Source: Bettongia penicillata ogilbyi
Lineage: Eukaryota > Chordata > Mammalia > Diprotodontia > Potoroidae
Reading direction: 5' to 3'
Length of the DNA: 64,000 nt
Assembly: GCA_023548195.1 (NCBI GenBank)
Contig: JAJHZJ010000808.1
Location: 1,344,182-1,408,181, forward strand
Position numbers and translations under genes: made by a program. Below are positions 7,846-60,578 of this stretch, piece after piece. The notes beneath the pieces were generated by a model. That model ran no database searches. It was not told where the DNA came from and worked only from the letters and a program-made list of their open reading frames with translations. Within the stretch, counting starts at the first letter, position 1. The number at the start of each line of letters is the position of its first letter.

Positions 7846-10530
7846 AGAGCCAAGATGGTAGAGTAGAAAGACACACATATGCAGGGTCTCCCCACATAGC
7901 CTACAAAATACCTGTAGAGAGGGACTCTCAACAAATTCTGGAGGAGCAGAAGTGGAGAACAAGAGTGGAGGAGATTTCTAGCCCAGGGTGACCTGAAAGG
8001 CCCATGGGAAATGTTAGTTGCACTGGAAGTAGAGTGGAGCCCAGCCCAACCTTGGCCCTGCAGTGAGGCTCTTGAACAGCCCTCGGGGGTGGAATCTCCA
8101 ATCACAGAATCCCCAGTCCCAGCAACAGCGGGTTCTCAGATCCCTCAACCCACAGGTGCCAAAGGTCAGTGATGGGGTTTTTCAGCTGGCCAGGAAGGGA
8201 GAAGGGCCTTCCCATAGCTCTGGCAGAAGGCAGCGGCCACAGAGCCTGCACAGCAGCCCTAAGGAAGCTCCATTGTTGGAGCATAAAAACCCCTGGGGGT
8301 ACTGAGGAGTTGAGTCTTGTCTCTGCCCTGTGTGGAGGCCCTGGGAGAGCTGGTCTTTGTCTCACACTGAATGGCGGCCCTGCCCTTACAGCTTATCTGA
8401 AAATCAGACCCCAGTGCTGACTTGATGGAACTGGAGGCCAGGTGCCTGTGGAGAGGTAACTGCTAAGATTCTGGGCACAAAAATCCCTCTCTGAGTCCAG
8501 ACCAGTACATGCTTGATTGTGCCACCTTGGAGGAACTGAGATCTCACAGATACCAAGAGACTACTCTACTCTTGACAAAGGACCCAAAAGTCAAGTAACT
8601 GGTTGGGGAAAATGCCCCAAAAAATGAAAAAAAATTAGACTATAGAAGGTTACTTTCTTTGTGAACAGATATCTTCTCCCATCCTTTCAGATGAGGAAGA
8701 ACAATGCTTACCATCAGGAAAAGATATAAAAGTCAAGGCTTCTGTATCCCAAACATCCAAAATAAATATTCAATGGGCTCAGGCCATGAAAGAGCTCAAA
8801 AAGGATTTTGAAAATCAAGTAAGAAAGGTGGAGGAAAAATTGGGAAGAGAAATGAGAGAGATGCAAGAAAATCATGAAAAGCAGGTCAACACCTTGCTAA
8901 AGGAGACCCAAAAAAATGCTGAAGAAAATAACACCTTGAAAAATAGGCTCACTCAATTGGCAAAAGAGGTTCAAAAAGCCAATGAGGAGAAGAATGCTGT
9001 AAAAAGCAGAATTAGCCAAATGGAAAAAGAGGTTCAAAAGCTCACTGAAGAGAATAGTTCTCTCAAAATTAGGATGGAACAGATGGAGGCTAATGACTTT
9101 ATGAAAAACCAAGACATTACAAAACAAAACCAAAAGAATGAAAAAATGGAAGATAACATGAACTATCTAACTGGAAAAACAACTGACCTGGAAAATAGAT
9201 CCAGGAGAGATAATTGAAAAATTATGAGACTACCTGAAAGCCATGACCAAAAAAAGAGCCTAGACATCATCTTCCATGAAATTATCAAGGAAAACTGCCC
9301 TGAGATTCTACAACCAGAGGGCAAAATAAGTATTGAAAGAATCCATCGATCACCACCTGAAAGAGATCCAAAAAGAGAAACTTCTAGGAACATTGTGGCC
9401 AAATTCCAGAATTCCCAGGTCAAGGAGAAAATATTGCAAGCACCTAGAAAGAAACAATTCAAGTACTGTGGAAATACAATCAGGATAACACAAGATCTAG
9501 CAGCTTCTACATTAAGGGATTGAAGGGCATGGAATAGGATATTCCAGAAATCAAAGGAACTAGGACTCAAACCAAGAATCACCTACCCAGCAAAACTGTG
9601 TATAATACTTCAAGGGAAAAAAATGGTCTTTCAATGAAATCGAGGACTTTCAAGCATTCTTGATGAAAAGACCAGAGCTGAAAAGAAAATTTGACTTTCA
9701 AACACAAGAATGAAGAGAAGCATGAAAAGGTAAACAGCAAAGAGAAGTCATAAGGGACTTACTAAAGTTGAATTGTTTACATTCCTACATGGAAAAACAA
9801 TATTTGTAACTCTTGAAACTTTTTTCAGTATCTGGGTAGTTGGTGGGATTACTCCCCCCCCCACACACACACACACACAGAGACAGAGACAGAGAGCACA
9901 GGGTGAATTGAATAGGATGGGATTATATCTTAAAATAATGAAATTAAGCAGTGAGAGAGAAATATATTGGGAGGAGAAAGGGAGAAATGGAATGGGGCAA
10001 ATTCTCAGAAAAGAGGCAAGTAAAAGACTTTTCAGTGGAGGGCAAAAGGGGGTGGTGAGAGAAAAAACATGAAGCTTACTCTCATCACATTCAACTAAAG
10101 GAAGGAATAAAATGCACACTCATTTTGGTATGAAAACCTACCTTACAATACAGGAAAGTGGGGGAGAAAGGGATAAGCAGGGTAGGGGGGATGATGGAAG
10201 GGAGGGCAGTGGGAAGAGGGAGAAATTAGAAGTCAACACTCTTGGGGAGGGACAGGATCAAAGGAGAGAATAGAAGAAATGGGGGGCAGGATAGGATGGA
10301 GGGAAATATAGTTAGTCTTACACAACATGACTATTATGGAAGTCATTTGCAAAACTACACAGATATGGCTAATATGGATTATGTTTTGCATGAATGAACA
10401 TGGAAAATCTATATCAAATTGCTTGTCTTCTCAAGGGGGCAGAGGGAAAAGAGAATTTAGGACTCAAAATAAAAAACCAAATGTTAAAAATAGTTTTTAC
10501 ATGTAACTGAAAAAAAATTTTAAAAGAAAA
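7846..10530 (+). mobile_element. HAL1 copy A: half-L1 retrotransposon (old)
   Basis: The 5' end 'gagccaagatggtagagtag' is the L1-type start. A 5' UTR (about 770 bp) is followed by ORF1 (8612-9713) and then directly by an 0.8 kb 3' UTR. No ORF2 lies between them. The 3' UTR has a C/A run (9858-9884) and G-rich purine tracts. Its end (about 10475-10520, 'tttttacatgtaactg') resembles the ordinary marsupial L1 end rather than the TAAA-tailed end of copies B, D and E, so it is a distinct, older subfamily. I found no convincing target-site duplication. Confidence 0.85.
8612..9713 (+). pseudogene. L1-type ORF1 of HAL1 A, inactivated
   Basis: ORF1p is the RNA-binding, trimeric coiled-coil chaperone of L1 ribonucleoproteins. 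The start is assigned by alignment to copies C and D ('gggaaaATGcc' context). A long heptad-like coiled coil is readable from about 8786, then the hallmark 'TDLENRSRRDN' at the RRM entry, and 'RDPKRETSRNIVAKFQ' further on. Breaks: an in-frame stop at codon 9 (8636), a TGA at 9215, a TGA at 9521 (see findings) and a length change near 9610. It ends with the family's 'FQTQE' terminus. It follows a 5' UTR and is followed by a 3' UTR, not by ORF2. It is not expected to make protein. Confidence 0.85.
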
Positions 10531-10794
10531 AGAATATTTACAAGTCTCTGCATCTTATGTCATAACAAAGAGGATTTGTTGTCATGTTTGATAACTTTAT
10601 TCAAGTACTTGTAGTGTCTATTTTACAAGTATCCTATAATTTAACAGTGGTAGTTGATAAAGTTAATTGAAAAACAATTTTTTAAAATTTTAAGTTATAT
10701 ATACAACAGAAAAGTCACATTCTAAACATCTTTCCATTACTCTTGAATGACAGTTTAAAAAAACAAGGTAATTCAGCTCCTCTTGAAAAGGATC
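10531..10794. other. No recognisable feature
   Basis: AT-rich spacer between HAL1 A and the next SINE. Confidence 0.5.
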
Positions 10795-11010
10795 ATGAGA
10801 CCACAGATTGAGAGCCATGAGAGACCTCAGAAATCATCTATTCTACTCCCTTCTTTTTGATAGATGAAGAGACTGAGACCTGAAGTAAATTAAATGACAC
10901 TTGCTTAAGGTCACACAGGAAATAGCTAGTCAAAGTGAGTTTGGAACCCAGGCCCTCTTATTCCAAATTCAGTACCCTTTCCATTGTATCAGGCTGGGTA
11001 TAGGTTGCTA
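10795..11010 (-). repeat. MIR-type SINE, antisense
   Basis: Read on the plus strand it has 'gatgaagagactgagacctg', 'aaggtcacacaggaaatag' and 'gaacccaggccctcttattcc', the reverse complement of the CORE-SINE layout. Confidence 0.75.
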
Positions 11011-11329
11011 AAAATCTAAATCCATCTGGATTGACCATTGGACAGGTCAAGCAAAAAACAGAAGAGAATAACAATTGAAAGGTAATAAGACAGTAGATCT
11101 TACTCCCTTATAGGCTTATGAACATAGAATGTAAAAGGTACAGGTGCTGCCTTGTGAGGGCAGCAAGAGAATCAACCGCTGAAAAATATTAGTTAACAAA
11201 ACCATCCTTGCCTGTAAGTCTATGACATGTGAAAATCAATTGAAAACATATATCTGGGGCATATTTGGCCTAAAGAAGAAAAGATTGGAGAGGGACCCTT
11301 GTCTTCAAGTATTGGAGGTTCTAAAGGGT

Positions 11330-11590
11330 TTGGTTCTAGAGGGCAAAACCAGGAGCAATGGTGGAAATTGCAAAGAGGGAAATTCAGGTTTGATGTCAGG
11401 AAAATGTTGCTAACAATTAGAGATATCCAAAGTAGGATGGATCACTTCGAGATGTGGTGGAGTTCCCCTTCTTGGAAGTTTCCATGCAGAGACACAATGA
11501 ACACTTGTAGGGTATGTTACAGTAGGAATTCCTTTGCTGTAGGAACTAAATTAAATATCCACTGAGGTCCCTTACAATTTCCAAATTCTG
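11330..11590 (+). repeat. L3/CR1 LINE 3'-end fragment
   Basis: 'ggtttgatgtcaggaaaatg', 'ttgctaacaattagag', 'gatgtggtggagttcccc' and 'ctgaggtcccttacaattt' follow the CR1/L3 3' end order. The open frames at 11222-11565 overlap it and are incidental. Confidence 0.65.
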
Positions 11591-11639
11591 TAATTTTATG
11601 ACTTCTGTTGGTGGAGAATTCTATCCAACTTTTAAAGAA

Positions 11640-12620
11640 TAATTAGTACCAATAAGTATGCATATTATTCACAAAATTAAGAAAGAAAGCACTCTATCAA
11701 ACTGTTTTTATGATACAATTATAGACCTAATATCTACATCAGAAAAGGATAAAGCCGAGGGGAACTATTTATCAATATCTTTAATGAATATCAACTCAAA
11801 AATTTTAAATAAAATCCTGACAGACTACCACAGTTCTTCCCAAATCATTCATTATAATCAAGTTAAATTCATGTGAAAGATGCAAGGATGGTTCATTATT
11901 AGGAAAATAATCAACATACTTAATCATGTTAAAAACAAAAACATTCAAAGCCATATTTTATCTCAATAGATGCAGAAGCCTAATTTCCAAATATTTTCCC
12001 CAAAAGATAGTCAAAGGATATAAACAAATGGTTTTTAAAAGAAGAATTGCAAACTCAACAACCTAACTAATAATAGAACTTCAGATCAAAACAACTCTGA
12101 AGTTTGACCTTACATCCCATCAACATTAGAAAGATTATAAGATGACACACATACGAGGAAATTGCTAGTAGAGTTGTGAATCATTCTGGAAAACAATTCA
12201 GAATTATGAAAATTAAACGACTAAAATATCTATACTCTTTGACCCAAAGAGTTCACTACTAATCCTATACTCCAAGGTTATAGATAAGGAAAACATTCCC
12301 ATAGACTCCAAGTTATTTATAGCAACACTTTTGGTGATAGCCAGGAATTAGACGCAAAGTAGATTTCCGTTAATTGGGGAGTGACTAAACAAATTGTGGT
12401 ACATGAATATAGTGGAATATTACTGTGCTGTAAAAAATGGTGAATATGAAGACTACAGAGAAGCATGGAAAGATTTACATTATCTAAAGCAGAGTAAAGT
12501 AAGCAGAGCTATGAAAACCATACACATGGCAACCATAATGGAAATAGAACAAACCAACACAAAGTGACCAGAAATGAATGTTGCCAAATTTCAAGGAACA
12601 AACATGACTCCAAAGAAGTA
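11640..12620 (+). pseudogene. L1 ORF2 / 3' UTR fragment with internal deletion
   Basis: From 11660 to 11980 one frame reads like the L1 reverse transcriptase region ('SISLMNINSKILNKIL', a 'NQVKF' site, then 'MQGWFII' after an in-frame stop). The sequence then jumps to the end of ORF2 and the 3' UTR ('gatatagccaggaattag'-like block, 'ttaattggggagtgactaaa', 'gaagcatggaaagatttaca'). More than 1 kb of RT/C-terminal coding is therefore missing. This is L1 proper, unlike the ORF2-less elements in this window, and is too decayed to code. Confidence 0.75.
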
Positions 12621-13099
12621 ATATGAGAAAACATCCCTACACCACTTATTTGCAGAGGTAGAAGGTCCACAGGTGTGATAAACTGCATGCATTTTCCAAC
12701 TTTTTCAATGTATTCATCAATTTCACTGATTTTTTTTCTTTTTCCTCTTTTCTGTGTTTGTCCTTTAAAAATATTACTTTCATAGGCAATAGCTCTCTGG
12801 AAGAGCAAGAGAGATGCTAGGAAAAATTCTGGTAATGTAAAACACTAGATATCCATAATTTTTTTAACCTCATTCTGGCTATCATTTCCACCTGTTCAAA
12901 CATCTCAGCTCATTAAAGTCACTCAGTTTACTAGCCCTGATCTTTGTAGGGCAAATCTCTGAATCTATGAGGTGGGTAGTATTAGGTGCCCCCTCATACC
13001 ATGGGAAATAAAGTTCATGCCTTCCACTTTCCATTGGCATTAGTTTTAACTCCATGGAACAAGATACCCATTGTTGTCTCCTTCCCTTCCCTGACCTCT
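12621..13099. other. No recognisable feature
   Basis: No repeat core or gene recognised between the L1 fragment and an L2 end. The minus-strand 99-residue frame at 12509-12808 partly overlaps the L1 3' UTR. Confidence 0.4.
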
Positions 13100-13220: not shown

Positions 13221-13221
13221 G

Positions 13222-13432: not shown

Positions 13433-13554
13433 TTCAGTGACGGGAGATGGCAAAACACCCTGAAAGTGCCTCTAGCTGAAGCTAGGTTACTGATCCAATC
13501 AGCGTGGAGGTTCTGCTACCCAGCATTGTAATCAGTATGTAATGACGGGACTTT

Positions 13555-25005: not shown

Positions 25006-25754
25006 GGGAGGGCGGAGCCAAGATGGCGGAGTAGAAGGACGCACGTTTACGAGCTCCAACCCACAGCCCATAGAATTAATGTAAAGAGAGACCCCCATGA
25101 CTTCTGGACCACTGAAAGGGGTACAGAAACAGAGTGGAAGAGATTTCTGTGCCAGAGAGCCCTGGAAAGCAGACTCCACCCCAGCACTGCCCTGGCTGCG
25201 GCCCCAGAGAAGCTGATCCGAGCAGGCTTCAGGGACGGAAGCTCCGGCAGCCGAGAAAGTCCCTCCACCCACAGAAGCTACAGGTCAGTGAGAGAGAAGG
25301 CTGGGCTGGATGAGGCGGGGAGCGGAGTGTCTCCGTGACTCGAGCCCCCTTGGGAGGAAGCGGCAGCGGCAGAGACGGGGGCAGAAAGCAGCAGAGGCAG
25401 AGGCATGGGCGGCAGCAGAGGCAGCAGCGGCTGCGCCGGCCCAGGACTCCCCCAGCAGCAGGCAGGATCTTCATTACGGAAGGTCTCTGCATAAACAACC
25501 TGAGGGAGCTGAGCCTGGGAGACGGCCCTGCCTCACCCCGCTCTATTACTGAAGGCCTCTGCATAAAGCCCCTGAGGAAGCCGAGTCTGGGAGGTGGCCC
25601 TGCCCCCACCCCAGCACCAGAACTAAAGCTCATTGATTAGCAGCTGGGCGGGCGGCACGGAAAGCCCATTTGAATCTCAGAGCCCAAGCACTAGCTGGGC
25701 AGATCTAGGCGGGGGTGGACAGGAATCTCAGAAGTCAAGTAACTGGCTAGGAAA
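25006..25754 (+). promoter_or_regulatory. HAL1 B 5' UTR, presumed internal promoter
   Basis: In L1 elements this region carries the internal promoter. It is GC-rich and CpG-rich between about 25190 and 25640, which contrasts with the AT-rich surroundings. It opens with 'gagccaagatggcgg', which contains a CAAGATGGCGG core like the YY1 site at the human L1 start. It contains a tandem 72-bp repeat (25473-25616). Promoter activity is inferred, not shown. Confidence 0.55.
25473..25616 (+). repeat. Tandem 72-bp repeat (2 units) in HAL1 5' UTR
   Basis: Units start at 25473 and 25545, each reading 'attac.gaagg.ctctgcat' then 'aaa', a 'ctga.g.ag' block, 'gag.ctgggag' and a 'ggccctgcc' block. The same 72-bp spacing is seen in copy D (58096 and 58168) and the unit pair is also readable in copy C. 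Confidence 0.8.
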
Positions 25755-26856
25755 ATGCCTAGAAAAGGGAAGTAAAATAAGACTATAGAGAGTTTTTTCC
25801 AACAAATGCAAATGATCCCAACATTCAGATCTGATAACGAGGATGTATTCTTGCCATCAAGGAAAGACGTGGAGGGCAGGGCCTCGGTACCCCAGACACC
25901 CCAGGGGGATGTCAGGTGGGCTCAGGCCTTGGAAGAGCTCAAAAAGGATTTTGAAAAGCAAGTTAGACAGGTGGAGGAAAAACTGGGAAGAGAAATGAGA
26001 GAGATGCAAGAAAAGTATGAAAAACGGGTCAATACCTTGGTTAAGGAGACCCAAAAAAATGCTGAAGAAAATAACACCTTGAAGAATAGGCTCACTCAAT
26101 TGGCAAAAAAGGTTCAAAAAGCCAATGAGGAGAAGAATGCTTTCAAAAGCAGAATTAGCCAAATGGAAAAAGAGGTTCAAAAGCTCACTGAATTTAATAG
26201 TTCTCTCAAAATTAGAATGGAACAGATGGAGTCTAATGACTTTATGAGAAACCAAGAAATCACAAAACAAAACCAAAAGAATGAAAAAAATGGAAGAGAA
26301 TGTGAAATATCTCATGGGAAAAACAACTGACCTGGAAAATAGATCCAGGAGAGACAATTTAAAAATTATGGGACTACCTGTAAGTCATGATCAAAAAAAG
26401 AGCCTAGACATCATCTTCCATGAAATTATCAAGGAAAACTGCCCTGACATTCTAGAACCAGAGGGCAAAATAAGTATTGAAAGAATCCATCAATCACCAC
26501 CTGAAAGAGATCCAAAAAGAGAAACTCCTAGGAACATTGTGGCCAAATTCCAGAACTCCCAGGTCAAGGAGAAAATCTTGCAAGCAGCTAGAAAGAAACA
26601 ATTCCAGTACTGTGGAAATACAATCAGGATAACTCAAGATCTAGCATCTTCTACATTAAGGGATCGAAGGCCGTGGAATAGGATATTCCAGAAGTCAAAG
26701 GAACTAGGGCTCAAACCAAGAATCACCTACCCAGCTAAACTGAGTATAATACTTCAGGGGAAAATATGGTCTTTCAATGAAACAGAGGACTTTCAAGCAT
26801 TCTTGATGAAAAGACCAGAGCTGAAAAGAAAATTTGACTTCCAAACACAAGAATGA
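25755..26856 (+). pseudogene. L1-type ORF1 of HAL1 B, inactivated
   Basis: Encodes the L1 ORF1p nucleic-acid-binding protein, about 366 codons if unbroken. After the short N-terminus there is a long coiled coil (roughly residues 55-155, with 'LEELKKDFEKQVRQVEEKL'). The RRM entry 'TDLENRSRRDNLKIMGLP' follows, then 'RDPKRETPRNIVAKFQNS', and a C-terminal domain ending 'KFDFQTQE'. Breaks: a TAA at codon 7 (25773) and an extra A in the run at 26284-26290 that shifts the frame. It retains an arginine codon (CGA, 26665) where copies A, C and D have TGA. A 3' UTR follows, not ORF2. Confidence 0.9.
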
Positions 26857-27859
26857 GAAGAAGTATGAAAAAGTAAACAGCAAAGAGAAGTCTTAAGGGA
26901 CTTACCAGAAGTGAACTGTTTACATTCCTACATGGAAAGACAATATTTGTAACTCTTAAAACTTTTCAGTATCTGGGTAGTTGGTGGGACCACACACACA
27001 CATGTACATGCATGCATGCACACACACATACACACATGCACACACACACACACAGAGACAGAGAGCACAGAGTGAATTGAATAGGATGGGACCATAGCTG
27101 AAAAGAAATTAAGGTAAATGGTGAGAGAGAAATGTAGTGGGAGGAAAGAGGGTGAAATGGAATGGGGTAATTATATGTCATTTAAGAGGCAAGTAGGAGA
27201 CTTTTTAGTGGAGGGAAAAAGAGGAGAGCTGAGAAAAAAAAAACAATTAGTTTACCCTCATCACATTTGACTAAAGGAAGGAATAAAATGCACACTCATT
27301 TTGGTATGAAAACCTATCTTACAGTATAGGAAAGTGGGGGAGAAGGAGATAAGCAAGGGGGGCGGATGATGGAAGGGAGGGCAAAGGGAGGAGGGAGCAA
27401 TTTGAAGTCAACACTTGGGGAGGGACAGGATCAAAAGACAGAAGAGAAACAATGAGGGGCAGGGTAGGATGGAGGGTAATTCAGTTAGTCTTACACAACA
27501 CGACTATCAGGGAAGTCATTTGTAAAACTACACAGATATGGCCTATATTGAATTGCCTGCCTTCCCAAAGGGAATGGGTAGGGAGGGAGGGATGGGGAGA
27601 ATTTGGAACTCAAAGTTTTAGGAACAACTGTTGAGTATTGCTGTTGCTACTAGGAAAGAAGACATACAGTTAATGAGGAATAGAAAGTCATCTGGCCCTA
27701 CAGGAGAAAACAAAAGATGGAGACAAGAGAAGGGAGGGATGACAGAAGAGAGGGCAGATTGGAGATAGGGAAAATTAGATGCTTGGGGTATTGGGGTGGG
27801 GGGGAGGGGATAAAAGGGAAGAAAATTTGGAACCCAAAATTTTGTGAAAATGAATGTAA

Positions 27860-27863
<4 letters not shown>
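26857..27863 (+). other. HAL1 B 3' UTR
   Basis: About 1 kb directly after the ORF1 stop. It has a CA/TG/CATG microsatellite (26990-27058), a first G-rich purine tract (about 27340-27480) and a second (about 27580-27830) with several runs of four or more G. It ends 'aattttgtgaaaatgaatg' before the TAAA tail. No sense-strand coding frame resembles ORF2. Confidence 0.75.
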
Positions 27864-27895
<32 letters not shown>

Positions 27896-28030
27896 ATGGA
27901 TAAATAAATAAATAGATAGGTAGGTAGATAAATAAATAAATAAATGGATGAATGAATGAATGAATAGATAAATAGATAGATAAATAAATAGGAAAAAATA
28001 TGAAAAAAATGAAAAAAGAAAAAAAAGAAA
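27864..28030 (+). repeat. TAAA-rich tail / microsatellite
   Basis: The A-rich tail of HAL1 B has expanded into (TAAA)n with GATA- and GAAT-like variants, followed by A-rich sequence to 28030. The two long minus-strand frames here are only the antisense of this repeat. Confidence 0.85.
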
Positions 28031-28205
28031 AGTGCTCATTTGACCCAAGTTCGAAAACAATTCTTGGAAGAGTTAAAGAAAGAGATAAGGGGAAAAAATG
28101 GAAAAGAAAGGAGTAATGCAAGAAAGTTATGAAAAGAGAATTAGTAGCTCTTAAAAGAGGCACCAAGAAATACTGAAGAAAATTATCCAGGAAACACTTG
28201 ACTGT
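28031..28205 (+). pseudogene. Older L1 ORF1 fragment (host of HAL1 B)
   Basis: 'gcacatttgacccaagttc'-like text reads as a diverged relative of the ORF1 coiled coil. Visible stretches include 'QFLEELKKEI' followed by stops and frame changes, and 'TEEN' near the end. It is collinear with the 5' UTR at 24200-25005. Confidence 0.55.
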
Positions 28206-30179: not shown

Positions 30180-31590
30180 GTTACATAAGCAACAAGATGG
30201 AGGACTAGAAATTTTCTGTGCTGTCTGAACTTTCCTAAAAAGAAGTTATGCACCAAAGATAAAGCAACTTCAGTTGCCTGTAGGGTCTAGGTTTCCCAGA
30301 ATCCCAGAAAGGAAGATTTAAAAAAAACCCACGAACTGACACTAACCCTGCACTCACTCAGCACCCCTCCCCTACCTCCCATGCTACCAGCAGCCAGGAA
30401 GCACTAGTAGACCTGAGGACATGACACAGGCTTACAACAAAACCCACCTCCACGCCCTGACTCCCCCCTCCCTCTTTCCATTGACTCCAGGCTGTGGGGA
30501 ATTTGCCTTGATGGAAACAGATAGTCAGGTGGTGATAGCCCCAAAGGAGAAAAAACCTGGTGAAGGCCATAACCCCATAGCACCAGTGCTACAAAGCTCT
30601 GAACCACTGTTGCCAGGTGATAACTTTCAACCAATAGTGCTGCAAAGCTCTGAACTGCCAGTGCTGGGCCAAATAACTAAAGAACAGAGGAAACGGGACA
30701 GTACACTGTATATGTGTGGTGAGGGGCAAGGGAGGGCTGTGCAGCAGTCCACTAAACCAGGGGGAAAGAGCAGTCTCCAGCTGGGGCAAGTTCTTACCAC
30801 CCAAAAGTCAGTTGGGCAGACATCTAAGGGGGTGAACTGTGAATTCCCTAGAATGAGAGGATGCTGACACTCTCTGAGATCTCACCCTCAAAGAAACCAC
30901 AATCAGAGGAAAAGAAGTCAGAAGTGAATAACAGGGGAAAAGAAGAGAAAGGGGAAAAGACTAAAATTACCAAAGATTTCAAGGAAAAGAAAACTCAGAG
31001 CCCTTGAATACAAACAGATCAATCAACAGGAAAAACAGTAACAACAAAAAGAAATAGAACTTTCATATCCAGCAAACAAGTTCAGGCATCTGTGAATAAA
31101 TACTGGAAACCAACCCAACACTTAATGAGATAGAGAATAGCAGAAAAATACACTATAAAAATAATAAGCAGAATAGAAAAATCAGAATCTGCAACGTCAA
31201 ACCTCACCAAAAAAATAGAAGAGGGAATAATAGGTTGGGGATACAAATACACAAGAGTGAAGTACAGTATAGAAGAGAAATAAAAAACAATAACATTAAA
31301 AGAAAATATGCCCACTGTGCAAGAAAACTTACTTCAAAGATAGGATACACAAAGACATCCTAAGGATTATAGGGCTCCCAAGAGAACAGGACAGGATAGG
31401 ATAAAAAAAATTAATTATAATGAAGGAAATAATAGAAGATAACTGCCCAGAACTTCTGAATATAGAAAATAAATACCAATACCAAATAAAAGAATTCACA
31501 AATCACCTTCAGAAAGAAGAAAAGGGAGGGGATTCATAAACTTCAGAGACATTGACACCAAAAAGTTTTCAGAACTTTTGATAAAGAGTC
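30180..31590 (+). mobile_element. Old L1: 5' UTR plus decayed ORF1
   Basis: Starts with 'aagcaacaagatggaggact', a third L1 5' UTR subfamily in this window. The 5' UTR-like part runs to about 30900. A decayed ORF1 region follows, in which 'MKEIIEDNCPELLNIE' (from about 31422) matches the RRM-to-CTD segment of ORF1p. It ends near 31590 without ORF2 or a 3' UTR. The 148-residue frame at 30421-30867 is within the UTR-like part and is not a gene. Confidence 0.6.
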
Positions 31591-32469: not shown

Positions 32470-32740
32470 GAACTTTTTATTTTTTATATTTTTTCCTTAA
32501 TAGTATTTTTTCCAATTATATGTAAAGATAATTTTCAACATTCATTTCTATAAAATTTTGAGTTCAAAAATTTTCTCCCTTCCCCCTCCCCAAGACAGCA
32601 AGCAATCTGATAAAAGTTACATATGTATAATCACATTAAACATATTTCCACATTAGTCATATTGTGAAAGAAGAATCAGAACCACAAGAAAGAAAAAATT
32701 GTCTTGGACCACTTATTTCTGAGAAGAGCTATGAAGAACT
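32470..32740 (-). mobile_element. L1 3' UTR fragment, antisense
   Basis: On plus: 'ttccaattatatgtaaagat', 'tttctcccttccccctcccc', 'gacagcaagcaatctgataa' and 'cacattagtcatattgtgaa'. This is the reversed 3' end of marsupial L1; a related piece is at 39960-40147. Confidence 0.7.
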
Positions 32741-39959: not shown

Positions 39960-40147
39960 ACCATGATATTCTTTTTTCCCTGATCCACTTTGATTTATTT
40001 CATTAACTATTTCCCATTTACATATAAAACAAAATCTTTACACCAATTTTTTTATTTGAGTTATAAATTCTCTCCCTTCTTCCCTGTCCCATTCCTGTAG
40101 AAGGCAAGCAATTTGATACAGATTATACATCCCACAATGTTTGTAAT
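39960..40147 (-). mobile_element. L1 3' UTR fragment, antisense
   Basis: 'cccatttacatataaaacaa', 'tataaattctctcccttctt', 'gaaggcaagcaatttgatac' and 'acatcccacaatgtttgt' match the reversed L1 end at 32470. HAL1 E inserted just inside its right edge. Confidence 0.6.
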
Positions 40148-40160
40148 AACTCATCTCCCT
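40148..40160. repeat. Target-site duplication, left copy (HAL1 E)
   Basis: The 13-bp text 'aactcatctccct' is repeated at 44286-44298, immediately outside the two ends of HAL1 E. Confidence 0.8.
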
Positions 40161-40729
40161 GAGCTCAGGGGGTGGAGCCAAGATGGCAGAGTAGAAAGAC
40201 TCACATACTCTAGCTCTTCCCCCACAGCCCATAAAATACCTGTAAAAAATGACTCTCAACAAATTCTAGAGCAGCAAAAGTCACGAACAACAGAATGAAA
40301 GATATTTCCAGTCAAAGTTAACCTGGAAGACCGACAGGAAAAGTCTATCCCATGGGACACTGAGCGGAGCAAAGCCTAGACCTAGCTGTGCAGCACCGGG
40401 AGAAACAGGGTGGGAATAGGACTCCAGGGCAGAATTCCCAGCAGAGAGCACCTCAGATCTTTCAACCCACAAGCACCAAAGAAAGCTTCAAAGGTCAGTA
40501 AGAGGACTTTCCCAGCTGGGTGAGAAGGGAGCAGGGGTTCCCTCAGCACAGGCCCCTGGCAGCTGCATAGCAGCGGCAGTGGCCATCTGTGAAGCATTCT
40601 ACTTGAAGCCCCTGGGGGAACTAAGCAGCTGATCTGAATCTCTGCCCTGACCACAGTCTTGGAGGGAGGAGGAGCACTAGGATCCTCCTCTTGACAAAGG
40701 ATTCAGAAGTCAAGTAACTAGCTGGGAAA

Positions 40730-41022
40730 ATGCCCAAAAAAGGGGGAAAAAAATAAGATCATAGAAGGTTACTTTCTATCCTTCCAGATGAGGAAAAACA
40801 ATGCATACTGACAGAGGAAGTCAAGGTTTCTGCATCCAGTACCTCCAAAATACATATGCAATGGTCTCAGGCCATGGAAGAGCTTGAAAAACGAGTCAAC
40901 AACTTGCTAAAGTAGACCTCAAAAAATGCTGAAGAAAATAAAACCTTTAAAAATAGGCTAACTCAATTGGAAAAAGAGGTCCAAAAAGCCAATGAGGAGA
41001 AGTCTTTAAAAAAGCAGAATTA
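40730..41022 (+). pseudogene. L1-type ORF1 N-terminal fragment of HAL1 E
   Basis: Starts with the family ATG context ('gggaaaATGccc') and reaches a TAG within about 12 codons. Downstream text still follows the family ('gccatggaagagcttgaaaa', 'aatgctgaagaaaataaaac') but lacks the coiled-coil segment between those two blocks. It ends abruptly at the junction with copy C. Confidence 0.75.
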
Positions 41023-41355
41023 AATGACATATAATTTACCCCATTCCATTTCACCCTCTTTCCTTCCCCTACCTTTCTCTTTCACCATTTACCTTAATTT
41101 CTTTTAAGATATGGTCCCATCCTATTCAATTCACTCTGTGCTCTCTGTCTCTGTATGTGTGTGCATGTGTGTACGTGAGTGTGCGTGCACGCATGTACGT
41201 GTGTGTGTGTGTATATGTGTGATCCCACCAACTACCCAGATACTGAAAAGTTTTAAGAGTTACAAATATTGTTTTTCCATGTAGGAATGTAAACAGTTCA
41301 CTTTTGGCAAGTCCCTTATGACTTCTCTTTGCTGTTTACTATTTCATGCTTCTTC

Positions 41356-42457
41356 TCATTCTTGTGTTTGAAAGTCAAATTTTCTTTTCAGCTCTAGTCT
41401 TTTCATCAAAAATGCTTGAAAGTCCTCTGTTTCATTGAAAGACCATATTTTCCCCTGAAGTATTATACTCAGTTTTGCTGAGTAGGTGATTCTTGGTTTG
41501 AGTCCTAGTTCCTTTGACTTCTGGAATATCCTATTCCACGCCCTTCAATCCCTTAATGTAGAAGCTGCTGGATCTTGAGTTATCCTGATTTTATTTGCAC
41601 AATACTGGAATTGTTTCTTTCTAGCTGCTTGCAAGATTTTCTCCTTGACCTGGGAGTTCTGGTATTTGGCCACAATGTTCCTAGGAGTTTCTCTTTTTGG
41701 ATCTCTTTCAGGCGGTGATCGATGGATTCTTTCAATACTTATTTTTGCCCTCTGGTTGTAGACTCTCAGGGAAGTTTTCCTTGATAATTTCATGGAAGAT
41801 GATGTCTAGGCTCTTTTTTTGATCATGAGTTTCAGGTAGTCCCATAATTTTTAAATTGTCTCTCCTGGATCTATTTTCCAGGTCAGTTGTTTTTCCCATG
41901 AGATATTTCACATTCTCTTCCATTTTTTCATTCTTTTGGTTTTGTTTTGTGATTTCTTGGTTTCTCGTAAAGTCATTAGACTCCATCTGTTCCATTCTAA
42001 TTTTGAGAGAACTATTCTCTTCAGTGAGCTTTTGAAACTCTTTTTCCATTTGGCTAATTCTGCTTTGGTAAGCATTCTTCTCCTCATTGGCTTTTTGAAC
42101 CTCTTTTGCCAATTGCGTTAGCCTATTTTTCAAGGTGTTATTTTCTTCAGCATTTCTTTGGGTCTCCTTTACCAAGGTATTGACCCGTTTTTCATACTTT
42201 TCTTGCATCTCTCTCATTTCTCTTCCCAGTTTTTCCTCCACCTGTCTAACTTGCTTTTCAAAATCCTTTTTGAGCTCTTCCAAGGCTTGAGCCCACCCGA
42301 CATCCCCCTGAGATGTCTGGGATACAGAGGCCCCGACTTCCATGTCTTTCCCTGATGGTAAAAATATTTCCTCATCATCAGAATTGAAAGGTGGGAACAT
42401 TTGCACCTGCTCAAAGAAGCTCTCTATAGTCTTATTTTTCTTCCCTTTTCTAGGCAC
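41356..42457 (-). pseudogene. L1-type ORF1 of HAL1 C, nearly intact
   Basis: The best-preserved ORF1 in the window. It starts at the family ATG with 'MPRKGKKNKTIESFFEQVQ' and then has an acidic linker. A coiled coil with 'LEELKKDFEKQVRQVEEKL' and 'AEENNTLKNRLTQLAKEVQ' follows (about residues 60-165). The RRM entry is 'TDLENRSRRDNLKIMGLPE', then comes 'RETPRNIVAKYQNSQVKEK' and the C-terminal domain. An open run of 241 codons is broken by one extra base near 41745. A TGA follows at 41545-41547, with 62 further family codons after it. It would have encoded the RNA-binding ORF1p; no ORF2 follows. Confidence 0.9.
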
Positions 42458-43197
42458 TTTCCCAGCCAGTTACTTGACATCTGAGATTCCTCTGCACCCC
42501 TGCCTAGATCCGCCCAGCTAGTGCTTGGGCTCTGAGATTCAAATGGGCTTTCCGAGGCGGCTGTGGCTGCTATTCAATGTGAGCTTAAGTTCTGGTGCTG
42601 GGGTGGGGGCAGGGCTGTCTCCCAGGCTCAGCTCCCTCAGGGGCTTTATGCAGAGACCTTTAGTAATGGAGCGGGTGGGGGCAGGGCCACCTCCCAGTCT
42701 CAGCTCCTTCAGGTGGTTTATGCAAAGACCTTCAGTAATGAAGATCCTGCCTGCTGCTCTGGGAGTCCCAGGCCGCCGCCGCTGCCTCCGCCGCTTCCTT
42801 CCCCTGCCTCTGCCTCCGCGGCTTCCTCTCAAGGGGGCCAGAGCCATGGATTGGCCCCGCTCCCCCCTCGGCCAGCTCAGACATCTCTCTCACTGACCTG
42901 TAGCGTCTGTGGGCAGAGGGACCTTCTCAGCTTCCCGAGGTTCCGTCCCTGAAGCCTGCTCGGATCAGCTTCTCTGGGGCCGCAGCCAGGGCAGCGCTGG
43001 GGTGGGCTCCACTTTCTGGGGTGTGACGGACCCTGGGGATGGCTCTCCAGGGCTCTCTGGAATGGAAATCTCTTCCACTGTGTTTCTGCGCACCTTGCAG
43101 TGATCCAGAATTTGTGGGGAGTTCTTCTTGTAGGAAATATATGGGCTGTGGGTTCGGAGCTAGCATGCGTGAGTCTTTCTACTCTGCCATCTTGACT
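42458..43197 (-). promoter_or_regulatory. HAL1 C 5' UTR, presumed internal promoter
   Basis: GC- and CpG-rich (notably 42760-43000), with the same blocks as in copies B and D, including the doubled 'ctctgcataaa' unit. Role inferred from L1 organisation. The long frames on both strands here arise from the GC-rich text. Confidence 0.5.
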
Positions 43198-43405
43198 CAA
43201 GGACTTCCAAGCATTCTTGATGAAAATACCAGAACTGAAGAAAAAGTTCAACTTTCAAACACAAGAATTAAGAGAAGCATGAAAAGGTAAACAGGAAAGA
43301 GAAATCATAAGGGACTTTCTAAAGCTGAACTGCTTACATTCCTACATGGAAAGATAATATTTTTAACTCTTGAGACTTTTTTTCAGTATTTGAGTAGGAG
43401 GAGGG

Positions 43406-43444
<39 letters not shown>

Positions 43445-44285
43445 CACAGCACAGGTTGAATTGAATAAGAAGGGATGATATTTATGAAACAATAAAATTA
43501 AGGGATGAGAGAGGAATATATTGGGAGGAGAAAGGGAGAAATGGAATGAGGCAAATTATCACTCATAAAAGAGTTAAGAAAAATCTTTTTCAATGAAGGA
43601 GAAAAGGGAGATGGTGAGAAGGGAAAAGTGAAGTTTACTCTCTTCATACATGGCTTAAGGAGGGAATAACATGCCCACCAAATTTGATATGAAATATGTC
43701 TTACACTACAGGAAAGTAGGGGAGGAGGGGACAAGTGGGGTGAAGGGGATAATAGAAGGGAGGGCAAATGGAAGAAGGTAGTAACTAGAAGTAAACACTT
43801 TGGGAAGGGACAAGGTCAAATGAGAGAATAGAAAAAAAGGGGGAAGACAGAGTAGGATGGAGGGAAATACAGTTAGTCTTACACAACATGACTATTATGG
43901 AAGTCTTTTGCAAAATGACACATATATATAGCCTGTATTGAATTGCTTGCCTTCTCAGTGGGGATGGGTGGGGAGGCAGTGAGAGAGAGAAGTTGGAATT
44001 CAAGGTATTAGAAACAAATATTGAGAATTGTTATTGCATATAACTGGGAAATAAGAAATACAGGTAATGGGGTATAGAAATCTATCTTGCCCTACAAGAT
44101 AAGAGAGAAGATGGGGATAAGGGAAGGGTGGGGTATGACAGAAGGGAGGACACATTGAGGGAAGGGGTAATCAGAATGCAAGGTGTTATGGGGTGGGAGG
44201 AGGGAAGAGATGGGGAGAAAAATTGGAACTCAAAATTTTGTGGAAATGAATGCCATAATCTAAAAATAAATTTAAAAAAGAGAAA
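43198..44285 (+). other. HAL1 E: ORF1 end, 3' UTR and tail
   Basis: 'gacttccaagcattcttgat' marks the last ORF1 codons, which carry the family text to a decayed 'caaacacaagaatt' terminus. The 3' UTR then has (CA)n, two G-rich purine tracts and 'ctaaaaataaattt' at the end. Confidence 0.75.
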
Positions 44286-44298
44286 AACTCATCTCCCT
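44286..44298. repeat. Target-site duplication, right copy (HAL1 E)
   Basis: Second copy of 'aactcatctccct' (see 40148-40160), directly after the A-rich end. Confidence 0.8.
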
Positions 44299-51469: not shown

Positions 51470-52135
51470 ATGTTATCCAACTCCTCTTACTGCCTTGCAA
51501 TCTTTTTTCTTTAATCTAGGTAGCCTGAGCTTTAACAATTGAATATAAATATGATTGTACATTATATCAGGATTTCTCTGAGGTAGTGATCTATGGTAGC
51601 AGTCTTTATTTTCTGGATCCAATATTTCTGGACAATTTTCTTTTATTATATATTAAAACTAAATATGGCATTTAAGTTGTTTTTTCTTTTGTTTTGTGTT
51701 ATCCAAAAGATTCTTAGAATATCTCTCCATGCCCTGTATTCCAGGTCATCTATTTTCTACTATAGGTATTTCACATGTTCTTGTAATTTCTCTTTTGATT
51801 TTGCTCTAATTTTTAAATTTTTGAGTTTTGTTTCCTACATACTATTTACGGGGTAGACTCTGCTTTACTGTTTCCCAAATTCATTGTATAATGTCTGTTT
51901 TACTCTTCTCCTTATCTCTTCCTTCAATTTTCAAAATTATACCTCGTAACTAACCACTCTTGGAGTCACTATGACTATTTTAAACTCTTTTCCAGGTTTA
52001 TTGCAGAAATATTTTCTTCTGAAGTTTTGTTCTGGTAAAATACTACCTCAAAATGTTTCTTAATTACATTAAATTAATCATATTAGAAAGTTTGTTTTGT
52101 TTAATGATTTCCTCTAATGTCTCCCTTACTGAAGC
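51470..52135 (-). mobile_element. Old L1 ORF1 fragment, antisense
   Basis: On plus: 'gcagtctttattttctggat', 'ccaatatttctggacaattt', 'gattcttagaatatctctcc' and 'gtattccaggtcatctattt'. These correspond to the reversed RRM entry and downstream segment of ORF1. Its orientation is opposite to the piece at 50990-51460. Confidence 0.55.
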
Positions 52136-53905: not shown

Positions 53906-53924
53906 ATTAGAGGAATGGTTTTGA

Positions 53925-55497: not shown

Positions 55498-56265
55498 AGG
55501 AAGGATGTTAGGATAGTGGACAGAGTACTGGACTTGGAGAGATAAGGTCATGCCTTATAATTCTAACTCTGACAAGATGTATGACCACAGTCAAGTCACT
55601 TAAATACCGTCTATAAAATAGGCATCTGTAGTACCTACATTTCAGGGTTGTAATGATACTGAGAACTAGGTCTGGAACTAGTCAGAGGACCAGAGTTCAA
55701 ATCTTACCTTTGGTATTCACTATGTGACCTTGGGCATATAACTTTATCCTCCAGGGCCTCAGTTTCCTCATCTACAAAATAAAGGGGTAGGAATAATTGA
55801 CCACTGAGGTCCCTTCCAGGTGTTTAGCAGTGGTCTCATTAAATGAGAAAATGGATTTAAAACACTTTGCAAATGTTAAGTGCTATATAAATGCCAATTA
55901 TTATTAGAGACAAGAGAACTGGATTTGGAGTCAGGACAAGCGAGATTCAAATCCCACCTCAGGCACTTACTAGTGGTGAAACTCTGGGCAAGTCACTTAA
56001 CCTCTCTATGCCTCAGTTTCCTCATCTATAAAATAAGTTGGGGAACAACTTGATGGCCTTCTGGGATCCCTTGCAACTCTAAAATTAAGATCCTAACTTA
56101 TTAATAGTATGGTTCTAAACAAGTTATATGCCCTTCTGAACCTTAGTTTCCTTCTCTGTAAAATGAGATTATGGCCCTAACATCATAGACTTGTTCTGAA
56201 GCTTAACTATCATTCACACAAAGCACTTTGAAAATTTTAAAGGAAGGGCTATCAAATTTTATATA
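55498..56265 (+). repeat. Cluster of four sense SINEs, one nested
   Basis: A CORE-SINE (55498-55660, tail 55836-55905) is interrupted by a MIR (about 55661-55835, 'gagttcaaatcttacctttg'). A second MIR (55905-56092, 'gagattcaaatcccacctca') and a headless SINE (56095-56265, 'tttccttctctgtaaaatga') follow. Confidence 0.7.
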
Positions 56266-57298
56266 GTACTAATATTATTTTTAATAATTAATGGTAGGTT
56301 AAATTTGAAACAAATAATTGTCCAAAATGGCTGATGTTACAAGACTAAGGAATTGAGAGAAGACTGATGTTTACAACATTGGTAAGAAAACTGAGAGGGA
56401 AATTGAAAGTTTTAACTCAATATGATAGGATAGCCCCATCAATCAAACCCAAGTAATCTGGCATCCCTCTCTTCAGACAGTCACCAAAGGTCATGCATCC
56501 AGAGTAATTCACTTGAGGATGCTGGCAGTGTCCAACAAGTGAACTTAGAGGTGAAAGGGCAGAGATATTTTAGAACAAAGAAAAGGCCATCTGCCTCAAC
56601 ATGCTGAACTTAAACCTCAGTCTGGAGTTGAACAACTCTCAGAGGGCGACAACAGAAAAAAATTGTGAGTGTTTGTATCCAGCTGGGCTCAGAAAGTGTT
56701 TATGCTCACAAGCCATAGAGACCAGAGGAGTTGAAGGCAACAACGTTTAGGTTCCTACTGCTCAGTACACCCAGTGTCATGCTAGGAACTGTTATTTTAT
56801 GTTTTCCATTATTATAACAACAACTGAGAATATATCATTTGAATTCCATGTATTTAAAATGCCTTCTTTTATTTTCTTTTCTCTTTTCTCTCCTGCCCCA
56901 TCCTCCTCAGTGTATGAAGCCCCTTTAATACTACCAGAATTTACTTTTGAAACATATGCATTTATCCAGGACCAGGGCCAGGAGCTTAACAAAACAAAAT
57001 AAAACTTTATATCTCTTGGGTTCATATTCGCATAATTTTATTGACTTTATTATCTATCCTGTGATCTAAAAATGCATACCAGTCAGTGTCAAAGACTGAA
57101 CTTACTATCATTGTATACGCATCTGTATAAGCTGATCTTAATAAATATTATTTAGAGACATTACCACCTTCAGGACCAATAGATATTATCATACCACATT
57201 ATACAAGTGTTTATATAATACAAATAATTCAGTTTATGATAACTAATATTAGCATATTTATCTCATAACATTATTATTATACAAACTTGTATAAACAT
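56266..57298. other. No gene; AT-rich
   Basis: The opposite-strand frames 56792-57025 and 56799-57002 overlap each other and have no recognised similarity. Confidence 0.4.
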
Positions 57299-57560
57299 GG
57301 GGTCAGTTAGGTGACACAGTGGAAAGAGTTGTGAGCCCAGAGTCAGGAAGACCTGAGTTCAAATCCAGCCTCAGACGCTTATTATATGACCCTGAGAAAC
57401 CACTGTTTGCCTCAGTTTCCTCAACAGTAAAAAATTGAAATAATAATATATAAATAATTTGCATGATTATCATGAGGTCAAATAAGATAATATTTGCAAA
57501 GCACTTAGTACAGTGCCTGGCCCATAGTAGGTGCCATGTGAATGTTTATGCTTTTTTCCT
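57299..57560 (+). repeat. tRNA-headed CORE-SINE (MIR/MAR type)
   Basis: 'gtcagttaggtgacacagtg', 'gagtcaggaagacctgagtt', 'cctcagacgcttattatatg' and the tail 'gcaaagcacttagtacagtg'. Confidence 0.85.
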
Positions 57561-57619
57561 GCACATAATAGTTATTATTAGATGATGGCTTATTTATATA
57601 ACATAAATATTTTTAAAAT

Positions 57620-57634
57620 ATAATACCTATTATC
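57620..57634. repeat. Target-site duplication, left copy (HAL1 D)
   Basis: The 15-bp 'ataatacctattatc' is repeated exactly at 60579-60593. Confidence 0.9.
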
Positions 57635-58386
57635 AGGGGAGGAGCCAAGATGGCAGAGTAGAAAGACTCACGTATGCTAACTCTGAATCCACAGCTCATA
57701 AATTTCCTGTGAGAAGAACTTCCCACAAATTCTGGATCACTGCAAGGCGCACAGAAACACAGTGGAAGAGATTTCCGTTCCAGAGAGCCTTGGAGAGCCG
57801 TCCCCAGGGGTCCGTTGCACCCCAGAAAGTGGAGCCCACCCCAGCGCTGCCCTGGGCGTGGCCCCAGAGGAACAGATCCGAGCAGGCTTCAGGGACGGAA
57901 CCTCTGGCGGCCGTGAAGGTCCCTCCGCCCACAGACGCTACAGGTCAGTGAGAGAGACGTCTGAGCTGGCCGAGAGGGAAGCAGGGTGTCTCCGTGACTC
58001 AGGCTCCCTCGGGAGGCAGCAGCGGAGGGAGCAGCAGAGACAGAGGCAGAGGCAGCAGTGGTGGCCTGGGACTCCAGAGCAGCAGGCAGAAGTTCAGGTC
58101 TCTGCATAAAACCCCTGAGGCAACTGAGCCTGGGAGGTGGCCCTGCCCCCACCTGCTCCATTACTGAAGGTCTCTGCATAAAGCCCATAAGGGAACTGAG
58201 CCTGGGAGGTGGCCCTGCCCCCACCCAAGCACCAGAACTTAAGCTCACATTGAATAGCAGCCGCTCCCGCCGTGGATAGCCCTGAGACTGGGAAGCAGCA
58301 TTTGAATCTTAGACCCCAAGCACTGGCTGGGCAGATCTAGGCAGGGGTGGAGAGGAATCTCAGAAGTCAGGTAACTGGCTGGGAAA
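57635..58386 (+). promoter_or_regulatory. HAL1 D 5' UTR, presumed internal promoter
   Basis: L1-like 5' UTR with CpG-rich blocks (about 57830-58060). Two units of the 72-bp repeat begin at 58096 and 58168 ('aggtctctgcataaa'). Promoter function is inferred from L1 organisation. The frames on both strands here are GC-rich UTR. Confidence 0.55.
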
Positions 58387-59485
58387 ATGCCCAGAAAAAG
58401 GAAGCAGAATAAGACCATAGAGAACTACTTTATTGGGGAAGAGATGTTCCTTACCCCCTTCATTTCTGATGATGAAGTACAATGCCTGCCATCAGAGGAA
58501 GATGTGGAGGTCGGGGCCTCTCTATCCCAGACATCTGAGGTGGATGTCCAGTGGGCTCAGGCCATGGAAGAGCTCAAAAAGGATTTTGAAAAGCAAGTTA
58601 GACAGGTGGAGGAAAAACTGGGAAGAGAAATGAGAGAGATGCAAGAAAAGCAGGAAAAACGGGTCAATACCTTGCTAAAGGAGACCCAAAAAAATGCTGA
58701 AGAAAATAACACCTTGAAAAATAGGCTCACTCAATTGGCAAAAGAGGTTCAAAAAGCCAATGAGGAGAAGAATGCTTTCAAAAGCAGAATTAGCCAAATG
58801 GAAAAAAGGTTCAAAAGCTCACTGAATTTAATAGTTCTCTCAAGATTAGAATGGAACAGATGGAGGCTAATGACTTTATGAGAAACAAAGAAATCACCAA
58901 AGAAAACCAAAAGAATGAAAAAATGGAAGAGAATGTGAAATATCTCATGGGAAAAACAACTGACCTGGAAAATAGATCCAGGAGAGACAATTTAAAAATT
59001 ATGGGACTACCTGTAAGTAATGATCAAAAAAAGAGCCTAGACATCATCTTCCATGAAATTATCAAGGAAAACTGCCCTGACATTCTAGAACCAGAGGGCA
59101 AAATAAGTATTGAAGAAATCCATCGATCACCACCTGAAAGAGATCCAAAAAGAGAAACTCCTAGGAACATTGTGGCCAAATTCCAGAACTCCCAGCTCAA
59201 GGAGAAAATCTTGCAAGCAGCTAGAAACAATTCCAGTATTGTGGAAATAAAATCAGGATAACACAAGATCTAGCAGCTTCTACGTTAAGGGATTGAAGGG
59301 CGTGGAATAGGATATTCCAGAAGTCAAAGGAACTAGGGCTCAAACCAAGAATCACCTATCCAGCAAAACTGAGTATAATACTTCAGGGGAAAATATGGTC
59401 TTTCAATGAAATCGAGGACTTTCAAGCATTCTTGATGAAAAGACCAGAGCTGAAAAGAAAATTTGACTTTCAAACACAAGAATGA
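58387..59485 (+). pseudogene. L1-type ORF1 of HAL1 D, inactivated
   Basis: Starts at the family ATG ('MPRKRKQNKTIENYF') and continues through an acidic segment and the coiled coil ('FEKQVRQVEEKLGREMREM'). One base is lost at about 58806, which ends the first frame at 58881. A second open run (58851-59261) carries the RRM entry 'TDLENRSRRDNLKIMGLP' and 'RETPRNIVAKFQNSQ'. A 4-bp loss near 59225 and a TGA at 59294-59296 disrupt the C-terminal domain. The family terminus follows, with the stop at 59483. Known role of the family: RNA-binding chaperone of L1 RNPs. It is not expected to be functional now. Confidence 0.9.
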
Positions 59486-60578
59486 GAAGAAGCATGAAAA
59501 AGTAAATAGCAAAGAGAAGTCATAAGGGACTTACCAAAGGTGAACTGCTTACATTCCTACATGGAAAGACAATATTTGTAACTCTTAAAACGTTTCAGTA
59601 TCTGGGTAGTTGGTGGGACCACACACAGATGTACACACGCACACATACACATACATGTACATGCATGCACGCACACACACATACACACAAGCATGCACAC
59701 ACAGAGATAGAGAGCACAGAGTGAATTGAATAGGATGGGACCATATCTTAAAAGAAATTAAGGTAAATGGTGAGAGAGAAATGTAGTGGGAGGAGAGAGC
59801 ATGAAATGGAATGGGGTTAATTATATCTCATTCAAGAGGCAAGCAGGAAACCTTTTAATGGAGGGGAAAAGAGGAGAGCTGAGAAAAAAACATGAAGTTT
59901 ACCCTCATCACATTTGACTAAAAGAAGGAGTAAAATGCACACTCATTTTGGTATGAAAACCTATCTTACAGTACAGAAAAATGGGGAAGAAGGAGATAAG
60001 CAGGGAGGGAGGGATGATGGAAGGGAGGGCAATGGAAGAAGGGAGCAATTTGAGGTCAACACTCTTGGGGAGGGACAGGATCAAAAGAGAGAATAGAAAC
60101 AATGGGAGGCAGAATAGGATGGAGGGAAATACAATTAGTCTTATACAACACGACTGTTATCGAAGTCATTTGCAAAACTACACAGATATGGCCTGTATTG
60201 AATTGCCTGCCTTCCCAAAGGGAATGGGTGGGGAGGGAGGGATGGGGAGAATTTGGAACTCAAAGTTTTAGGAACAACTGTTGAGTATTGTTCTTGCTAC
60301 TAGGAAATAAGAAATACAGGTAATGGGGAATAGAAAGTCATCTGGCCCTACAGGACAAAAGAGAAGATGGGGACAAGAGAAGGGAGGGATGATAAAAGAG
60401 AGGGCAGATTGGTGATAGGGAAAATTAGAATGCTTGGTGTATTGGGTTGGGGGGAGGGGAGAAATGGGGAGAAAATTTGGAACCCAACATTTTGTGAAAA
60501 TGAATGTAAAAAGTTAAATAAATAAATAAATTTAAAAAAAAATATTCAGAAAGAAACCATAAAAAATAAAAATAAAAA
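59486..60578 (+). other. HAL1 D 3' UTR and A-rich tail
   Basis: Contains a mixed CA/TG/CATG repeat (59620-59702), G-rich purine tracts (about 59985-60130 and 60225-60475) and a TAAA/A-rich tail (60514-60578). Small sense frames here (for example 59981-60271) are translations of purine-rich text. Confidence 0.75.

What the first reader, a model, noticed from the sequence alone, without database searches (positions are those of the whole stretch)
7846..60578. A family of half-L1 elements: ORF1 without ORF2, five copies in 64 kb
Copies A, B, C and D (and the remains of E) all go directly from the ORF1 end ('FQTQE') into the same 3' UTR text. An L1 would have roughly 3.8 kb of ORF2 there. A shared junction in copies of different ages means the loss is ancestral and the ORF2-less form was itself copied. 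Half-L1 (HAL1) elements are an established class in mammals. The density here and the two subfamilies (A/E against B/C/D) suggest a long-lived, productive lineage in this marsupial.
Basis: partly seen in the sequence, partly recalled or inferred. Interest (0 to 1): 0.75.

Follow-up and report, generated by a model that had tools for sequence, protein, structure and literature searches.

The report
Half-L1 retrotransposon family in a marsupial
This stretch of a marsupial genome holds five dead copies of a mobile element that carries only one of the two genes of its LINE-1 parent and so must borrow the copying enzyme; such half-L1 elements are already known in mammals, and this looks like one more lineage of them.

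Summary
Five copies (A-E) run from an L1-type 5' end through ORF1 into one shared 3' UTR, with no significant ORF2 match. They share the passage from ORF1 into the 3' UTR at three levels of divergence. D and E carry target-site duplications, and C lies inside E. So the ORF2-less form itself was copied. ORF1 is an L1 ORF1p.

Corrections: 'FQTQE' is a later early stop; E reads on to 'LREA'. The subfamily split is mosaic: A and E share a 5' UTR type, but E, B and D share a long 3' UTR that A lacks. The first 55 ORF1 codons diverge far more than the rest in 9 of 10 pairs.

New: in codons 56-366, A against B/C/D gives dN/dS 0.30-0.33. Open relatives are annotated in tammar wallaby (nearest cluster: 20 sequences, 84% identical); whether they lack ORF2 is unknown, since the genome search did not complete. 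Verdict: new member of a known class (HAL1).

The parts
7841..10530 (+). Copy A: half-L1 with A/E-type 5' UTR, broken ORF1 (8612-9713) and a short 3' UTR; 3' end approximate; no target-site duplication found
25009..28030 (+). Copy B: half-L1, 5' UTR with ~1.9 copies of a 72-bp unit, broken ORF1 (25755-26856), long 3' UTR, long (AAAT)n-like tail; 3' end approximate; no target-site duplication found
41020..43198 (-). Copy C: half-L1 lying antisense inside copy E; 5' end nearly complete, ORF1 broken, ~700 bp of 3' end missing
40167..41022 (+). Copy E, left part (5' UTR and start of ORF1); most diverged copy; a few extra bases lie between the target-site duplication and this start
43197..44282 (+). 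Copy E, right part (end of ORF1, long 3' UTR); ORF1 end reads FQTQELREA*
40145..40160 (+). Target-site duplication of E, left; right copy at 44283-44298 with one mismatch
57636..60573 (+). Copy D: complete half-L1, ORF1 58387-59485 (broken), long 3' UTR, A-rich tail
57615..57634 (+). Target-site duplication of D, left; right copy 60574-60593 with one mismatch; preceded by TTTTT, i.e. TT/AAAA, the recalled type of L1-endonuclease site
26281..26856 (+). Open C-terminal part of ORF1 of copy B: RBD-like (PF02994) and C-terminal (PF17490) domains of L1 ORF1p

Best explanation
A non-autonomous LINE-1 derivative (half-L1, HAL1). An ancestral L1 lost ORF2. The remaining unit, an L1-type 5' UTR that probably carries the promoter, ORF1 and a 3' UTR with A-rich tail, was transcribed; its ORF1p probably bound its own RNA, and the reverse transcriptase/endonuclease of an intact L1, acting in trans, copied that RNA into new sites. 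Shown here: the anatomy, the shared ORF2-less form, duplications at two insertions, relative order of ages, and constraint on ORF1 between A and B/C/D. Inferred: the promoter, the supply of ORF2p in trans, and that ORF1p acts on its own RNA.
For: Same passage from ORF1 into the 3' UTR in 5 of 5 copies. No significant ORF2 match in them; the two probe pieces match solved human L1 ORF2p over residues 1-241 and 598-1275. The ORF1 C-terminal piece of B matches PF02994 (3.4e-12), PF17490 (1.2e-11) and L1 ORF1p structures (2yko, 2e-29); a piece of D matches PF02994 (8.7e-13). Best duplication scores are 19 (D, 21-bp match) and 14 (E, 16-bp match), each with one mismatch, against a 99% quantile of 13 in 200 random pairs; E is only just above it. 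D starts at TT/AAAA. The five copies start within a few bases of one GGAGCCAAGATGG-like text. Codons 56-366, A against B, C and D: dN/dS 0.30, 0.33, 0.30, upper 95% bounds 0.53, 0.53, 0.52. Changes setting A apart: N:S 20:16 against 3:1 neutral, p 0.009; changes private to B, C or D: 24:13, p 0.11. A-D and six database rows (five wallaby, one unassigned) form one clade, SH-aLRT 100, quick tree without bootstrap.
Against: No target-site duplication was found for A or B, and C has lost its 3' end. The parental L1 was not found. Within B/C/D, dN/dS is 0.34-0.57, and the 95% range reaches above 1 for BC and CD; A-E over 115 codons gives 0.59 (0.27-1.29). The constraint on ORF1 could partly have acted in an ORF2-bearing ancestor. 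A, C and D share a premature TGA at codon 304; I read it as repeated CpG decay (B has CGA; four wallaby rows have Q or R there), but an ancestral stop with reversion in B is not excluded, and would mean ORF1p was not needed in cis.
Confidence: 0.93

Rival explanations
1. Ordinary L1 insertions that lost ORF2 by separate later deletions.
For: One real L1 ORF2 relic lies in the window, and L1s were active in marsupials (PMC5322556, passage seen).
Against: Five copies of three divergence levels pass from ORF1 into the 3' UTR through the same bases; D and E have duplications around the ORF2-less unit.
Confidence: 0.02
2. One ORF2-less unit spread by segmental DNA duplication rather than by retrotransposition.
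For: Five copies within 64 kb.
Against: 500-bp flanks of A, B, D and E (C's lie in E and were not tested) share only short SINE-like matches; D and E have target-site duplications and A-rich tails.
Confidence: 0.02
3. Retrocopies of a domesticated ORF1-derived host gene (L1TD1-like) rather than of a mobile element with its own promoter.
For: ORF1-only; one of the 84 database relatives is named LINE-1 type transposase domain-containing protein 1 (P0015), and the L1TD1 structure 2lr6 is a weak match (3.4e-4).
Against: The copies begin at one L1-type start with different 5' UTR types; P0015 lies in another clade; L1 ORF1p structures match far better.
Confidence: 0.03
4. Half-L1s born several times from one L1 family, so that selection on ORF1 and the changes of UTR happened in ORF2-bearing L1s.
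For: The 5' UTR with the ORF1 N-terminus and the 3' end group the copies differently; HAL1s arose independently several times in mammals (PMC5753468, passage seen).
Against: The passage from ORF1 into the 3' UTR is shared by all five.
Confidence: 0.15

Closest known systems
HAL1 / half-L1 (Smit 1999; Bao & Jurka 2010, Gene 465:9-16; both known here only from citations in papers whose passages I saw)
   Same: L1-derived, ORF1 only, poly(A) tail, target-site duplications, dependence on L1 enzymes (as described in PMC5322556 and PMC5753468, passages)
   Different: Its own UTRs; nearest annotated ORF1 relatives are tammar wallaby, then wombat. Not compared with Repbase or Dfam; I recall HAL1 entries for opossum and wallaby there, from no call.
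Tammar wallaby ORF1 proteins P0001-P0004, P0011
   Same: P0001 is 84% identical to copy C over the whole query; all five fall in one clade with the window copies; P0001 and P0003 end like A-D
   Different: Their reading frames are open; their DNA context, and so presence of ORF2, is unknown
Autonomous marsupial L1
   Same: ORF1p domains
   Different: Has ORF2; the one ORF2 relic found here (12055-12525) is not followed by a match to this 3' UTR

Membership tests
HAL1 (half-L1) | encodes an L1-type ORF1p | tested here: met
   PF02994, PF17490, L1 ORF1p structures; all five frames now broken
HAL1 (half-L1) | no ORF2 between ORF1 and 3' UTR | tested here: met
   probe lacks ORF2p residues of about 242-597
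HAL1 (half-L1) | ORF2-less form is itself copied (shared junction, several ages) | tested here: met
   C inside E
HAL1 (half-L1) | A-rich tail and target-site duplication | tested here: met
   Duplication in 2 (D, E) of the 4 copies with both ends; none found for A and B; C not testable, 3' end lost
HAL1 (half-L1) | dispersed multicopy family derived from an identifiable L1 | not tested
   host genome search unanswered in 10 tries
autonomous L1 | ORF2 with endonuclease and reverse transcriptase | tested here: not met
Retrocopies of an L1TD1-like host gene | ORF1 falls with a named L1TD1 protein | tested here: not met
   the one so named, P0015 (an annotator's name), is outside the window clade

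The most novel reading that the evidence does not exclude
An ORF2-less L1 lineage that persisted for a long time in Australian marsupials while its ORF1 stayed under purifying selection and its 5' UTR, ORF1 N-terminus and 3' end were exchanged or remodelled module by module, with intact copies still in macropods: evidence that ORF1p is needed in cis even when the enzyme is borrowed.
Probability: 0.4. Interest if true: 0.45.

Novelty: new member of a known kind. Interest (0 to 1): 0.25.

Why it matters
Half-L1s let one ask which L1 protein must act on its own RNA. A lineage that keeps ORF1 but not ORF2, with constraint on ORF1, bears directly on that. A half-L1 has also been raw material for host genes: the eutherian Bex/Tceal family is traced in part to HAL1b (PMC7586669, passages seen). 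Here the case rests on five dead copies, so it is a pointer rather than a proof.

Tried and rejected
Independent deletion, segmental duplication and L1TD1-like retrocopies were considered and rejected (see rivals). Shared TGA at codon 304 in A, C and D: first suspected as an ancestral stop; CpG context, CGA in B and Q or R in wallaby rows P0001-P0004 make repeated decay more likely. Scans of viral contigs and genome contigs with the B C-terminal piece: 7 and 63 stretches matched a pattern, none encodes a relative. Rfam scan of the window at gathering thresholds: 0 matches. Pfam, 6 pieces: no family for the C and A N-terminal pieces, and for the D and B N-terminal pieces only coiled-coil-like matches below the curated cut-offs; PDB: none for the C N-terminal piece. 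Dating in years was left out: no marsupial rate came from a call. The tree used 87 rows: 83 of the 84 database hits (P0076, a fusion with a receptor annotation, dropped) and window copies A-D (E dropped as too short). The N:S counts leave out stops, two-against-two splits and sites with three bases, and the neutral 3:1 rests on a transition weight of 2.6 that I set. Bao & Jurka 2010 is not held.
Full report
Observation. Comparing copy D with the window finds four relatives: B at 25009-28030, A at 7841-10530, C at 41020-43198 on the minus strand, and E in two parts at 40167-41022 and 43197-44282 around C. All five pass from ORF1 into the same 3' UTR without a gap of more than 3 bases in the 190 columns scanned around the stop. 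tblastn with two pieces of human L1 ORF2p (endonuclease; RT core to C-terminus) finds nothing significant in the copies. It finds one decayed ORF2 C-terminal part at 12055-12525 (E 7e-11), which shows that the probe works here. The typed pieces match solved human L1 ORF2p over residues 1-241 and 598-1275; residues of about 242-597 were not in the probe.

What the protein is. The open C-terminal piece of ORF1 in copy B matches the L1 RBD-like domain PF02994 (3.4e-12) and the domain PF17490 (1.2e-11); a piece of D matches PF02994 (8.7e-13). B's piece matches six PDB sequences: L1 ORF1p 2yko and 2ykp (2e-29), 2ldy, 2jrb and 2w7a, and weakly the L1TD1 protein 2lr6 (3.4e-4). The part before it looks like a long coiled coil by inspection. 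All five ORF1s are broken by stops, frameshifts or deletions.

How the copies got there. The best duplication at D is a 21-bp match and at E a 16-bp match, each with one mismatch; the scores, 19 and 14, lie above the 99% quantile (13) of 200 random pairs, E's only just. D's duplication begins at TT/AAAA, the recalled cut site of L1 endonuclease. For A and B none was found. C lost its 3' end, and E lost about 620 bp beside it; one deletion after a normal insertion explains both, and an insertion without endonuclease would too. The 500-bp flanks of A, B, D and E share only short SINE-like stretches, so these are separate insertions. The five copies start within a few bases of one GGAGCCAAGATGG-like text. 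I recall that human L1 starts almost identically, with a YY1 site; no call tested this. A YY1 site from the 5' UTR of HAL1b is mentioned in PMC7586669 (passage).

Age order. In the first part of the 3' UTR, non-CpG K2P distances are 0.088-0.092 among B, C and D, 0.17-0.18 between A and these, 0.22 between A and E, and 0.26-0.28 between E and B/C/D. Solving for branches gives 0.049 and 0.043 for B and D, 0.064 for A, 0.155 for E and 0.065 for the branch leading to B/D. C lying in E agrees. So the ORF2-less form existed before E and went on being copied.

E reads FQTQELREA* where A-D stop after FQTQE; behind that stop A keeps REA and C and D keep EEA, which line up with NSRES of an opossum-type L1 ORF1, and wallaby P0002 ends ESREA. 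The place where ORF2 was lost therefore lies further on than FQTQE, and finding it needs the parental L1. In the 5' UTR A and E go together (still 37% different). In the 3' UTR E, B and D share about 290 bases that A lacks; part of it (69% over 106 columns, E 3e-9) looks like a repeat of an earlier part of the same UTR. A ends like the fragment at 32485-32671.

Selection. Over codons 56-366, A against B, C and D gives dS 0.150-0.160, near the 3' UTR distance, and dN 0.045-0.052; dN/dS is 0.30, 0.33 and 0.30, with upper 95% bounds of 0.53, 0.53 and 0.52. Pairs BC, BD and CD give 0.48, 0.34 and 0.57, with upper bounds of 1.27, 0.78 and 1.38. Over the whole ORF1, A-E (115 codons) gives 0.59 (0.27-1.29) and E against B, C and D 0.29-0.37. 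By sites in codons 56-366, changes setting A apart are 20 nonsynonymous to 16 synonymous against 3:1 under neutrality (p 0.009); changes private to B, C or D are 24 to 13 (p 0.11). This fits constraint in the source line and less in the dead copies. The first 55 codons behave otherwise: in 9 of 10 pairs their silent divergence is 0.5 or more, or saturated; A-E (0.15) is the exception. That block has another history or changes unusually fast.

Relatives. The protein search gave 84 hits. The best is a tammar wallaby cluster, P0001, of 20 sequences, 362 aa, 84% identical to copy C; A is 90% identical to it over 347 columns. In a quick tree of 87 rows, A-D and six database rows (P0001-P0004 and P0011 of wallaby, P0060 unassigned) form a clade with SH-aLRT 100, with two wombat rows next to it (97). 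The opossum rows lie outside these 12. This makes the host most likely a diprotodont marsupial; that is inference.

Literature. Half-L1s are described as L1 derivatives with ORF1 only, TSDs and poly(A), depending on L1 enzymes (PMC5322556, passages), arising several times in mammals (PMC5753468, passages). ORF1 RNA can be mobilised in cell culture (PMC4859970, passages). PMC5322556 screened HAL1 in RepeatMasker output that included opossum, wallaby and Tasmanian devil. Against recent activity in wallaby: a 2011 table of families under 1% divergence lists for wallaby two ERV families and no HAL1, while it lists HAL1 for marmoset and guinea pig (PMC3183009, passages). Nine paper searches (eight listed in full, only 15 of 924) listed no title on marsupial half-L1s in this library, which lacks most subscription papers; the main paper, Bao and Jurka 2010, is not held. 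So I do not claim that this lineage is undescribed.

Verdict. A real half-L1 lineage, a new member of a known kind. Its ORF1 constraint and module mosaic make it somewhat more than routine, but five dead copies cannot settle them.

Noticed in passing
5' UTR of all five copies, in A at 8163-8170: A splice-donor-like AGGTCAGT is kept in 5 of 5 copies; two annotated wallaby proteins (P0004, P0011) match the translated 5' UTR and then continue in ORF1 near DEEEQ without its start, as if spliced; the join was placed by eye.
   Followed up: partly
25473-25612, 42601-42740, 58096-58225: About two tandem copies of a 72-bp unit in the 5' UTR of B and C, and a 58-bp repeat at the same spacing in D, recalling L1 promoter monomers of rodents (recalled).
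   Followed up: no
12055-12525: Decayed C-terminal part of a true L1 ORF2; the half-L1 3' UTRs have no match there.
   Followed up: partly
28013-28183 (+), 30961-31517 (+), 51479-51864 (-): Three more, much more diverged L1-type ORF1 pieces found with diverse marsupial ORF1s.
   Followed up: partly
32485-32671 (-) and 39994-40130 (-): Two fragments matching the 3' end of copy A; L1 or half-L1 origin not decidable.
   Followed up: no
codon 304 of ORF1 in A, C, D (D: 59294-59296): Same premature TGA in three copies, CGA in B; probably repeated CpG decay.
   Followed up: partly
P0014 (protein database): A marsupial-like L1 ORF1 is filed under a Bacteroidales metagenome bin on a 2.5-kb contig, probably host contamination.
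   Followed up: no
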